From an uncultured Pelagibacteraceae bacterium (GTDB taxonomy: Bacteria; Pseudomonadota; Alphaproteobacteria; Pelagibacterales; Pelagibacteraceae), in NCBI GenBank assembly GCA_902584685.1, contig CACIAP010000006.1:1-49159 (forward strand): a stretch of DNA of 49,159 nucleotides, in the 5' to 3' direction. This document shows positions 19,212 through 31,777 of the stretch, piece by piece. A program made the position numbers and the translations under genes. Below the pieces are notes generated by a model. That model had not been told where the DNA came from. It was given only the letters and a program-made list of their open reading frames with translations, and ran no database searches. The number at the start of each line of letters is the position of its first letter. The first letter of the stretch is position 1.

Positions 19212-19481
19212 CTAAATATCAACCTTTTCTGACCTCAACAATTTCAATTTTTGAGCAACTCCACCTCTTCCAGAATAACCTCCAAGGCCTCCATCGGACC
19301 TAATAACCCTATGACAAGGTATATTTGGAGCATAAGGGTTCTTAGCACAGGCATTAGCAACCGCACGAGCTGATTTTGGCTTGTTTATTGCTATAGCTAC
19401 CTGTTTATATGTTTTTACAGACCCTCTAGGGATCTTTTTTAGATAATTCCATACCTGTAATTGAAATTTAGTGCCTTTCAT
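19212..19481 (-). CDS. ogt: Minimal O6-methylguanine-DNA methyltransferase (C-terminal domain only)
   Basis: This 89-aa protein corresponds to the DNA-binding and active-site domain of Ogt/MGMT. It contains GTKFQLQVWNYLKKIPRG, SARAVANACAKNP, the alkyl-acceptor cysteine C56 in PCHRVI and GGLGGYSG. The cysteine separates it from alkyltransferase-like proteins, which have tryptophan there. The usual N-terminal domain (about 70-80 aa) is absent, and the frame starts exactly at the domain boundary. The start codon lies 6 nt after the last helix of a structured RNA on the same strand. Confidence 0.88.
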   Translation of the reverse strand: MKGTKFQLQVWNYLKKIPRGSVKTYKQVAIAINKPKSARAVANACAKNPYAPNIPCHRVIRSDGGLGGYSGRGGVAQKLKLLRSEKVDI

Positions 19482-19486
19482 GAAGA

Positions 19487-19670
19487 AAAACCCCTGTTAC
19501 CTTGCACTTTTTACGGTGCAAAGAACAGTAGTTTTGGCACGTCGTTGTATGCGCTACCGCCATGCCTTCCGCCCTACGATTTTAGCGCTACTCCGTAAGA
19601 CTTTCTGCCCCCTGGGCTTGGTCCTCTCGGCCTTTCCCCAGTCGGCCAGTTAAGGGTTGCCCCTTAATTC
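19487..19670 (-). ncRNA. GC-rich structured RNA (unidentified small RNA or long ogt leader)
   Basis: By hand count 19501-19660 is about 55% G+C in an otherwise strongly AT-rich window. On the minus strand it begins with a perfect hairpin UUAAGGG-GCAA-CCCUUAA (19650-19667) with a GNRA tetraloop. Next come possible GGCC/GGCC (19629-19632 with 19644-19647) and GCCC/GGGC (19607-19617) hairpins, and a GCGCU/AGCGC helix (19551-19555 with 19584-19588). It ends in three nested helices: UUGCAC/GUGCAA, CUGUU/AACAG and AAAAC/GUUUU (19487-19535). Signature motifs of RNase P, SRP, tmRNA, 5S or 6S RNA were not found. Confidence 0.65.
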
Positions 19671-19753
19671 ATCTCACAATAACAAACTACTTAGGTTGAA
19701 TGTATCACTTTTTAAGCGATTAAACATGATAGGTGTGAATAACGTTAATAACT

Positions 19754-19918
19754 CTAAAAGTATAATAATGAAACAATTCCAGCTAAGCTTAAAATTAATA
19801 CTGCTATCAAAATATATATAGATTTCTTTTTCTCAGGCTTATCCAATTTTTCAAATTTAAACAGCACAAAAAAAACTATTCCAATAAAAGCTAAAGCTAA
19901 AATAAAATATTTTAACAT
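19754..19918 (-). CDS. Small two-helix membrane protein, 54 aa
   Basis: A short frame encoding two hydrophobic helices (about residues 4-20 and 34-53) joined by the charged loop KFEKLDKPEKKK. Lysine-rich loops between two membrane spans suit an inner-membrane protein with a cytoplasmic turn. It is divergent from the recombinase gene and shares its short upstream region. No family is recognised; it could be an island-encoded regulator, toxin-like peptide or complex subunit. Confidence 0.5.
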   Translation of the reverse strand: MLKYFILALAFIGIVFFVLFKFEKLDKPEKKKSIYILIAVLILSLAGIVSLLYF

Positions 19919-19940: not shown

Positions 19941-19969
19941 TTGACATCTTAAATGACTTATATTATTAC
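19941..19969 (+). promoter_or_regulatory. Candidate promoter of the recombinase gene
   Basis: A perfect -35 TTGACA at 19941-19946 is followed after 17 nt by TATTAC (19964-19969), a four-of-six -10. A start near 19976 would place transcription inside the palindrome and about 25 nt before ATG 20001. Confidence 0.5.
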
Positions 19970-19999
19970 TAATGATAATTAATTGTTATCAATAGTAAT
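19965..19999. repeat. Imperfect palindrome overlapping the recombinase promoter (operator or core site)
   Basis: Arms ATTACTAATGATAA (19965-19978) and TTATCAATAGTAAT (19986-19999) are inverted repeats matching at 13 of 14 positions around a 7-nt spacer. It covers the -10 and likely start site, and ends one base before the ATG. Either an autoregulatory operator or a binding site of the tyrosine recombinase itself would look like this. Confidence 0.6.
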
Positions 20000-20000
20000 T

Positions 20001-20954
20001 ATGAATAAATTAACAACAGATCTTAAATTGCTTCATGAAGCAACTTTAAATAATCTTAAAAGTTCTAAAGCAAATAATACATTAAGGGCTTACAAATCCG
20101 ATTTTAAGGACTTCGGTGCTTTTTGTGCTAAGCATGGTCTTAATTCATTACCATCGGAGCCAAAAATAGTTTCAATTTACCTTACCCATTTGTCCAAAAA
20201 TTCTAAAATAAGCACCATACGAAGAAGATTGGTGTCTATAAGTATGGTTCATAAGCTTAAAGGGCACTATTTAGATACAAAACATCCAATCATAACTGAG
20301 AACTTATTAGGTATCAAAAGAGTAAAAGGAAGCATACAAAAAGGCAAAAAACCTATATTAATCAATCATTTAAAATCTATAGTTAATGTAATAGATGAAC
20401 AAAAGTGCGAGGAAATCAAAAAGTTAAGAGACAGATCAATAATACTTATTGGGTTTGGTGGTGGTTTCAGAAGAACTGAGCTAATCTCTATAGATCATGA
20501 GGACTTAGAGTTTGTGCCTGAAGGCCTTAAAATAGCTATCAAAAGATCAAAAACAGATCAATTTGGGGAAGGAATGATAAAAGGCCTACCCTATTTTTCA
20601 AATGAAATTTATTGTCCAGTTACCAGTCTTAAGAGATGGTTAGAAGTTTCAAAGATAAAGTCTGGACCTATTTTTAGAAGATTTTCTAAAGGTTCCTCAT
20701 TAACAGAAAAGAGATTAACAGATCAATCTGTAGTATTGTTAATGAAAGAGTATTTGAACTTAGCTGGTATAGAAAATAAAAACTTTGCAGGTCACAGTTT
20801 AAGAGCAGGATTTGCTACTGTAGCAGCAGAATCTGGTGCTGATGAAAGAAGTATAATGGCTATGACAGGACATAAAACAACGCAAATGGTAAGAAGATAT
20901 ATTAGAGAAGCTAACATATTTAAGAATAATGCACTGAACAAAATTAAGATATAA
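20001..20954 (+). CDS. Tyrosine recombinase / site-specific integrase
   Basis: This 317-aa protein has a SAM-like core-binding domain (about residues 5-110) and a catalytic domain with the complete active site: R157 (in FRRTELISI), H265-S-L-R268, H291 (GHKTT) and Y300 (RRYIR). ATG 20001 is preferred over a TTG at 19983, which lies inside the palindrome; the sequence after it (MNKLTTDLKLLHEA) starts a proper helix. It probably mobilises or once mobilised the adjacent island. It could instead act as an inversion or resolution enzyme. Confidence 0.9.
   Translation: MNKLTTDLKLLHEATLNNLKSSKANNTLRAYKSDFKDFGAFCAKHGLNSLPSEPKIVSIYLTHLSKNSKISTIRRRLVSISMVHKLKGHYLDTKHPIITENLLGIKRVKGSIQKGKKPILINHLKSIVNVIDEQKCEEIKKLRDRSIILIGFGGGFRRTELISIDHEDLEFVPEGLKIAIKRSKTDQFGEGMIKGLPYFSNEIYCPVTSLKRWLEVSKIKSGPIFRRFSKGSSLTEKRLTDQSVVLLMKEYLNLAGIENKNFAGHSLRAGFATVAAESGADERSIMAMTGHKTTQMVRRYIREANIFKNNALNKIKI

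Positions 20955-31700: not shown

Positions 31701-31777
<77 letters not shown>

What the first reader, a model, noticed from the sequence alone, without database searches (positions are those of the whole stretch)
19487..19670. Unidentified GC-rich structured RNA next to a minimal ogt
About 55% G+C in an AT-rich genome, a GNRA-capped perfect hairpin and a triple nested terminal helix ending 6 nt before the ogt start codon. It fits either a free RNA with a terminator-like end (nested helix, then UUUUU) or a cis element that controls a DNA-repair gene by hiding its start. It lies beside a recombinase and lacks hallmarks of known housekeeping RNAs. Abundant unexplained structured RNAs (for example the IMES classes) are known from marine metagenomes, and this could be one.
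Basis: partly seen in the sequence, partly recalled or inferred. Interest (0 to 1): 0.8.

Follow-up and report, generated by a model that had tools for sequence, protein, structure and literature searches.

The report
Ocean IMES-2 RNA gene in SAR11
The odd GC-rich stretch is the gene for IMES-2, a known but functionally unexplained structured RNA of ocean bacteria; here it sits in a SAR11 genome with its own start and stop signals, and related genomes suggest that it works as a free RNA rather than as a switch for the neighbouring DNA-repair gene.

Summary
The genome is SAR11, family Pelagibacteraceae. Of 397 sampled genomes of the order, 200 carry it, once each. It looks like a free-standing gene: conserved upstream boxes and, beyond the Rfam model, a terminator hairpin in 123 of 129 distinct loci, giving about 186 nt. 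An ogt gene follows in 90 of 136 loci; 42 others clearly have different neighbours, so it is no dedicated ogt switch. Forty-nine diverse cores support the fold by covariation and add a kissing contact between the loops of P3 and P4 that is absent from the structure line printed for the Rfam model. Eleven relatives keep the recombinase and ogt but lack IMES-2. Most likely mechanism: a trans-acting RNA that binds a protein; that last step is inference. Function remains unknown in what I could read. The neighbouring recombinase is Xer-like with a dif-like site.

The parts
19487..19674 (-). IMES-2 RNA gene, full inferred transcript (about 186-188 nt)
   Evidence: Rfam match over the 141-nt core plus the terminator hairpin
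19534..19674 (-). IMES-2 core as in Rfam RF02035
   Evidence: 157.3 bits, E 2e-41, model 1-141 of 141, not cut off
19650..19667 (-). P1: perfect 7-bp hairpin with GCAA tetraloop
   Evidence: 100% of cells paired, 4 of 7 pairs with changes on both sides
19605..19649 (-). P2: long stem with bulge, GAAA internal loop and GAGA tetraloop
   Evidence: 9 of 11 outer pairs and 3 of 4 inner pairs with changes on both sides
19571..19601 (-). P3: hairpin whose loop kisses P4
   Evidence: all 8 stem pairs show changes on both sides
19536..19566 (-). P4: hairpin whose loop kisses P3
   Evidence: 5 of 9 pairs with changes on both sides, one position never pairs
19584..19589 (-). loop-3 arm of the kissing contact (AGCGCU)
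19550..19555 (-). loop-4 arm of the kissing contact (AGCGCA; 5 standard pairs with loop 3 in the window)
19486..19534 (-). P5 terminator hairpin (19487-19534) and U run (19486-19490)
   Evidence: hairpin plus T run in 123 of 129 distinct loci
19676..19684 (-). extended -10 like TGTTATTGT
   Evidence: conserved TGnTA context in the upstream sequences
19701..19713 (-). conserved -35-region box (AAGTGATAC)
   Evidence: 128 of 133 distinct upstreams within 4 mismatches of the 18-base consensus, which starts at -46 to -43 (5th-95th percentile)
19734..19751 (-). tandem DnaA-box-like repeat (here TTATTAACG + TTATTCACA; the first copy is poor in the window)
   Evidence: 116 of 133 distinct upstreams within 3 mismatches of the tandem consensus, against 0.2% of shuffles
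19212..19481 (-). ogt, 89 aa, DNA-binding domain of O6-methylguanine methyltransferase (neighbour, not part of the RNA)
   Evidence: PF01035 and TIGR00589
19754..19918 (-). 54-aa ORF between the recombinase and the RNA promoter
   Evidence: small ORFs also lie there in several relatives without IMES-2 (by eye)
19966..19998 (.). dif-like inverted repeat just upstream of the likely recombinase start
19983..20954 (+). Xer-like tyrosine recombinase, 323 aa from TTG (ATG probably at 20001)
   Evidence: PF00589; best NCBIfam match XerD, 72.7 bits, far under its cut-off of 329.6

Best explanation
The feature is a stand-alone gene for IMES-2 RNA in a Pelagibacteraceae (SAR11) genome. It is transcribed on the minus strand from about 19674, from its own promoter (extended -10, a conserved GTGATAC box at about -35, a tandem DnaA-box-like repeat at about -80), and ends at a terminator hairpin at about 19487, leaving an RNA of about 186 nt. 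The RNA folds into P1, P2, two side-by-side hairpins P3 and P4 whose loops kiss, and the terminator hairpin P5. It acts in trans, as judged from neighbours that change between genera while promoter, fold and terminator are kept. It most likely works by binding a protein rather than by a conserved antisense seed, because what is conserved lies in helices, tetraloops and the kissing contact (inference). The DnaA-like boxes suggest that expression is tied to the cell cycle or growth (inference). The confidence is for the free-standing trans-acting IMES-2 gene; for protein binding as the mode of action I would say about 0.5.
For: Rfam full-length match. 200 of 397 genomes of the order carry it, one match each; second matches found with looser limits are under the cut-off. 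Neighbours in 136 loci: 84 recombinase + ogt, 6 ogt only, 39 mnmA + convergent gene c11, 2 mnmA only, 3 opposite-facing SRAP gene, 1 recombinase only, 1 none of these (gene order). Terminator in 123 of 129 distinct loci. Upstream boxes kept across genera. Fold: 92.8% of cells paired, 32 of 45 pairs with changes on both sides, 0 of 500 shuffles as high. Kissing contact: 97.6% of cells paired, 14 cells with changes on both sides, 0 of 500 shuffles. Conserved unpaired runs of 3 or more columns at 90%: only GCAA, GAAA, AAA, AAA. Missing as a whole from 11 relatives that keep both neighbouring genes.
Against: No transcript data were available, so promoter, ends and abundance are predictions. The upstream consensus was drawn from the sequences it was counted on, so its shuffle control is not independent; the strict form of the -35 box is found at only 7 of the 18 IMES-2 genomes searched. 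In the window the first DnaA-like box is poor. Only 3 of the 5 kissing pairs vary, that number is not unusual against shuffles (67 of 500), and the number of further pair types is not either (443 of 500). Protein binding has no direct support; a base-pairing RNA whose seed changes with its target would also show no conserved seed. About half of the sampled relatives live without the RNA, so it is no universal housekeeping part.
Confidence: 0.8

Rival explanations
1. A trans-acting base-pairing sRNA: unpaired stretches (loops 3 and 4, the GAAA and AAA linkers) pair with mRNAs.
For: Free-standing gene with a terminator and U tail; loops 3 and 4 are strongly conserved.
Against: The conserved loops pair with each other and no conserved unpaired run longer than 4 is left. 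Targets were not searched.
Confidence: 0.25
2. A cis element of ogt: the leader or attenuator of the repair gene, with the terminator hairpin next to the start codon.
For: In 90 of 136 loci ogt follows (the ogt match begins 51-70 nt after the Rfam 3' end), right behind the terminator. In this arrangement ogt may be read by run-through from the IMES-2 promoter.
Against: 42 of 136 loci clearly have other neighbours (39 mnmA with the convergent gene c11, 3 an opposite-facing SRAP gene) and 2 more show mnmA. 11 of 11 IMES-2-free relatives searched keep ogt, directly behind another small gene as far as I could read by eye.
Confidence: 0.06
3. A replacement for 6S RNA: an RNA that binds RNA polymerase in a lineage without 6S.
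For: 6S (RF00013) is found in 0 of 20 SAR11 genomes, while the same search rings in 5 of 14 control genomes (4 over the cut-off), Caulobacter among them; length and single copy would fit.
Against: 6S is missing from the 10 genomes with and the 10 without IMES-2 in that set alike, so IMES-2 does not track the gap; the fold (short hairpins in a row) lacks the long bubbled helix of 6S (recalled definition).
Confidence: 0.12
4. A DNA element: part of the replication origin, of the dif region, or a recombination site.
For: DnaA-like boxes upstream; in this genus it lies next to a Xer-like gene with a dif-like repeat, near the GC-skew maximum in G015 (coarse).
Against: Compensatory changes between paired bases on the RNA strand; the locus is elsewhere in other genera (in G001 IMES-2 lies about 470 kb from the recombinase); single-contig genomes of 99-100% completeness lack it.
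Confidence: 0.03

Closest known systems
IMES-2 RNA (Rfam RF02035)
   Same: Full-length covariance-model match, same helices P1-P4, same conserved loops.
   Different: Rfam's model stops before the terminator hairpin P5, and the structure line printed for it carries no loop-loop pairing; here both are seen, with promoter boxes and SAR11 host genomes. Whether the original paper already drew the loop-loop pairing or named the host could not be checked (not held).
IMES-1 RNA (Rfam RF02034)
   Same: Same naming series.
   Different: 0 of 17 SAR11 genomes over its cut-off (15 of 17 have weak matches at E up to 1, as do 7 of 14 controls); another family.
6S RNA (RF00013)
   Same: Similar length, stand-alone gene.
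   Different: No match; different fold.
SAR11_0636 element and the other P. ubique motifs of Meyer et al. 2009 (PMC2704228)
   Same: GC-rich structured intergenic RNAs of SAR11; for one a separately transcribed ncRNA is proposed there.
   Different: In the window no Rfam family other than IMES-2 and tRNA reached its cut-off.

Membership tests
IMES-2 (RF02035) | Score over the curated gathering cut-off (54.7 bits), full length | tested here: met
   157.3 bits, model 1-141 of 141
IMES-2 (RF02035) | Consensus helices P1-P4 supported by covariation | tested here: met
   49 distinct relatives, 32 of 45 pairs with double changes, kissing pairs included
IMES-2 (RF02035) | Expressed as RNA in sea water (defined from marine environmental sequences, recalled) | not testable with these tools
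   no read data; promoter and terminator only predicted
ogt leader / riboswitch | Constant position upstream of the regulated gene | tested here: not met
   90 of 136 loci have ogt downstream, 42 clearly others
6S RNA | Match to the 6S covariance model | tested here: not met
   no match in the window, in its genome (70% complete) or in 20 relatives
Mobile element cargo | Recombinase that travels with the RNA | tested here: not met
   the recombinase gene is in 19 of 19 genomes searched, 11 of them without IMES-2, and is not beside IMES-2 in the 6 genomes of other genera in that set (coordinates)
Phage or plasmid RNA | Presence in phage, viral or plasmid records | tested here: not met
   the window's RNA has no blastn match in phages or plasmids at E 1e-5; an 18-base pattern gave one viral contig, a chance match inside a coding gene

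The most novel reading that the evidence does not exclude
IMES-2 is a growth- or cell-cycle-coupled RNA under DnaA control that binds and restrains a core machine (RNA polymerase or the ribosome) in SAR11 cells, which lack a detectable 6S RNA; the kissing pair of hairpins is its protein-docking module, and its patchy presence and changed locations reflect a dispensable growth-tuning function in one of the ocean's most abundant bacterial groups.
Probability: 0.12. Interest if true: 0.85.

Novelty: new member of a known kind. Interest (0 to 1): 0.5.

Why it matters
IMES RNAs are remembered as very abundant in sea-water transcript data with no known job (recalled). Placing IMES-2 in SAR11 genomes, with predicted start and end, a tertiary contact, a short upstream control region and close relatives that lack this gene between the same two neighbours, turns an orphan environmental RNA into one that can be tested by comparing strains.

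Tried and rejected
Rejected: dedicated ogt switch; replication origin (absent from single-contig genomes; position against GC skew); phage or plasmid RNA; mobile-element cargo; IMES-1 standing in for IMES-2 (0 of 17 over cut-off); a simple swap of 6S for IMES-2 (0 of 20 have 6S). A covariance model of my own (R1) found nothing further: 0 of 80 genomes that Rfam's model had missed (no positive control in that run, and only 80 of the 197 misses were sent) and 3 of 385 in the class, all SAR11 (at most 8 candidates shown as scored per genome, so distant relatives may be missed). The strict box CAAYNANNAAGTGATA has 13 sites in 11 of 30 genomes; 7 lie just upstream of IMES-2, the other 6 were not followed and are about what the reversed pattern gives (4 sites), so it yielded no regulon. 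Papers: on IMES-2 only one sentence in the giant squid genome paper (PMC6962438, passage read); searches. PMC2996960 was seen only as a listing. The two 2009 Nature papers that I recall on marine RNAs are not held. Meyer 2009 (PMC2704228): abstract, first part of one section and one section in full; PMC5069720, PMC6429828, PMC2864571: passages only. A likeness of the GUAGCGC loops to the D arm of the window's tRNA-Pro was noticed by eye and dropped, since the loops change to GUGC, GCAC or GUAC in relatives.

Rows dropped: of 120 named loci, 4 lay too near a contig end and 1 (L109) is a fusion, probably a chimera; the other 115, with the window and 20 fetched loci, make the 136.

Full report
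What is there. The minus strand of 19487-19674 is 52.7% G+C in a window of 27.7%, and the 184-base window at 19492 is the GC maximum of the whole window. Its fold is far more stable than shuffles (z = -4.95, 0 of 200). cmscan against all of Rfam identifies 19534-19674 (minus) as IMES-2, RF02035, 157.3 bits against a cut-off of 54.7, full length. The other matches over cut-off in the window are four tRNAs. So the element belongs to a described family whose function, in what I could read, is not known.

Whose genome. In the window's order, 200 of 397 genomes carry IMES-2 (75 of 151 among the near-complete ones), in 6 of 13 genera and all in one family, one match in each. With looser filters, 25 of 36 chosen genomes pass the cut-off; second matches there are under it, at a level that also rings in 4 of 14 controls. 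Of 53 genomes of the order's other family, none matched my own model. Two genera have strongly diverged copies (62-94 bits). In the class, 3 of 385 genomes matched, all of the same family, with the caveat that few candidates per genome were scored.

A free-standing gene. Behind the Rfam core, a hairpin of at least 9 pairs followed by at least 5 T in 7 bases is present in 123 of 129 distinct loci, giving a transcript of 173-200 nt, median 186; the six misses have hairpins with weaker T runs, by eye. In front, 133 distinct upstream sequences share three elements at fixed places: a tandem repeat close to TTATCCACA-NN-ATTCACA at about -80 (116 of 133 within 3 mismatches, 0.2% of shuffles), a CAA...GTGATA box starting about -45 (128 of 133 within 4 mismatches, 2.2% of shuffles), and TGnTA just before the RNA. 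The consensus was made from these sequences, so the shuffles are no independent test; but two 400-kb samples of genomes hold only 2 and 3 sites within 2 mismatches of the tandem repeat, one of them IMES-2's own, against 75 of 133 upstream regions. The repeat fits the DnaA box (TTATNCACA, recalled); binding by DnaA is inference. In the window the second copy is good (TTATTCACA) and the first poor.

Not an ogt switch. Of 136 loci (not freed of duplicates), 84 have the recombinase upstream and ogt downstream, 6 show ogt alone, 1 the recombinase alone, 39 lie between mnmA and c11, an opposite-facing gene without a Pfam match, 2 show mnmA alone, 3 lie before an opposite-facing SRAP gene, and 1 has none of these. 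One locus, L109, a fusion of half an IMES-2 with recombinase-like sequence, was dropped as a probable chimera, and 4 for lack of flank. Genus by genus the surroundings change while promoter, fold and terminator stay. In the window's genus ogt begins right behind the terminator, so run-through transcription of ogt is possible there, but it cannot be the RNA's general purpose.

Natural absence. Eleven genomes of the same genus without an IMES-2 match over cut-off (all at least 96% complete; one has a match at E 0.67, 12 bits) keep both ogt and the recombinase, 11 of 11, side by side and pointing away from each other as in the window, with about 264 to 1257 bases between the two matches. In the 850 bases before ogt that I printed, a small ORF or an acetyltransferase-like ORF runs into ogt, and neither a GC-rich RNA nor its promoter boxes are seen (by eye). 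On a quick tree of 71 recombinase sequences (60 from IMES-2 genomes, thinned from 106 distinct; 11 without) the trait needs at least 8 changes, though well-supported branches force only 2; the shuffled mean is 10.5, so the trait is somewhat clustered; 34 of 68 inner branches are unsupported and the recombinase has two deep lineages, so this may not be the species tree. Gain and loss are not separated by this count.

Structure. In an alignment of 49 distinct cores (picked at under about 93% identity), 92.8% of cells form standard pairs, 32 of 45 pairs show changes on both sides, and none of 500 shuffles reached any of the five measures; slid controls fall to 32-43% paired. RNAalifold recovers the same helices from the alignment on its own (36 pairs). 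Beyond the structure line printed for the Rfam model, the loops of P3 and P4 pair with each other. GCGC/GCGC in most becomes GUGC/GCAC (L069), GCAC/GUGC (L076-L078), GUAC/GUAC (L073, L081, L121, L176), and UCGCU/AGCGA in L075 and L131. Over five pairs, 97.6% of cells pair and 14 cells have both sides changed, 0 of 500 shuffles reaching either; but only three pairs vary, that number is not unusual (67 of 500), nor is the number of pair types (443 of 500), and six rows have a mismatch at the outer pair. A sixth, outermost pair that I first drew forms in only 6 of the 47 rows with letters there. Because some loop pairs are not self-complementary, P3-P4 pairing is favoured over P3-P3 dimers; pairing between two molecules is not excluded. 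Conserved unpaired runs are short: GCAA, GAAA, AAA, AAA.

How it most likely works. Shown by computation: the family, the fold, the covarying contact, conserved promoter-like and terminator-like signals, changing neighbours. Inferred: transcription as a discrete RNA; action in trans; binding of a protein, because the conserved letters sit in helices, tetraloops and the loop-loop contact and leave no free seed; expression tied to growth or the cell cycle through DnaA-like boxes. SAR11 genomes lack a detectable 6S RNA (0 of 20, with 5 of 14 controls ringing, 4 over cut-off), which leaves room for another RNA on RNA polymerase, but 6S is missing with and without IMES-2, so this is only a possibility.

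The recombinase. It is a phage-integrase-family protein (PF00589) closest to XerD and XerC but far under their cut-offs, with one strong match in each of 19 SAR11 genomes searched. A dif-like inverted repeat with core close to GATAATTAATNGTTATC was the best inverted repeat before its start in 20 of the 23 loci printed (of 133 scanned). In G015 the locus is near the GC-skew maximum; in G001 the recombinase, but not IMES-2, is (coarse sampling of about a third of each genome). A housekeeping role in chromosome resolution is likely but not shown; so being beside this recombinase is no sign of mobility.

Verdict. It is IMES-2: not new as a family, unexplained as a function, and here given host genomes, a gene structure and a tertiary contact.

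Noticed in passing
window 19966-20954: The recombinase beside IMES-2 is Xer-like and has a dif-like inverted repeat (TTACTAATGATAATTAATTGTTATCAATAGTAA) just before its likely start; coarse GC skew puts its relatives near the skew maximum in two genomes.
   Followed up: partly
L060, L063, L248, L250, L251 against L233-L241: Two lineages of this recombinase in SAR11 appear to go with two types of dif-like arms (CCGATAA against ACTAATGATAA and close variants).
   Followed up: partly
20 SAR11 genomes: No 6S RNA detectable in any of 20 SAR11 genomes, although the same search rings in Caulobacter and four other controls.
   Followed up: partly
L109, around 270-290: IMES-2 5' half fused to recombinase-like coding sequence in a single-cell assembly; probably a chimera (by eye).
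   Followed up: no
window 19754-19918 (-) and L220-L223: Small ORFs sit between the recombinase and IMES-2 or ogt; the one tested (72 aa, from L062) has no Pfam match.
   Followed up: partly
L226-L231: In some IMES-2-free genomes an acetyltransferase-like ORF fills the site between recombinase and ogt and runs into the ogt start (by eye).
   Followed up: no
recombinase side of the locus: window, L060, L074, L075: Glycosyltransferase-like and sugar-nucleotide genes lie beyond the recombinase and vary from genome to genome, as in a hypervariable region (by eye).
   Followed up: no
window 31701-31777: The tRNA-Pro D arm contains GUAGCGC twice, like the two IMES-2 loops; probably coincidence.
   Followed up: partly
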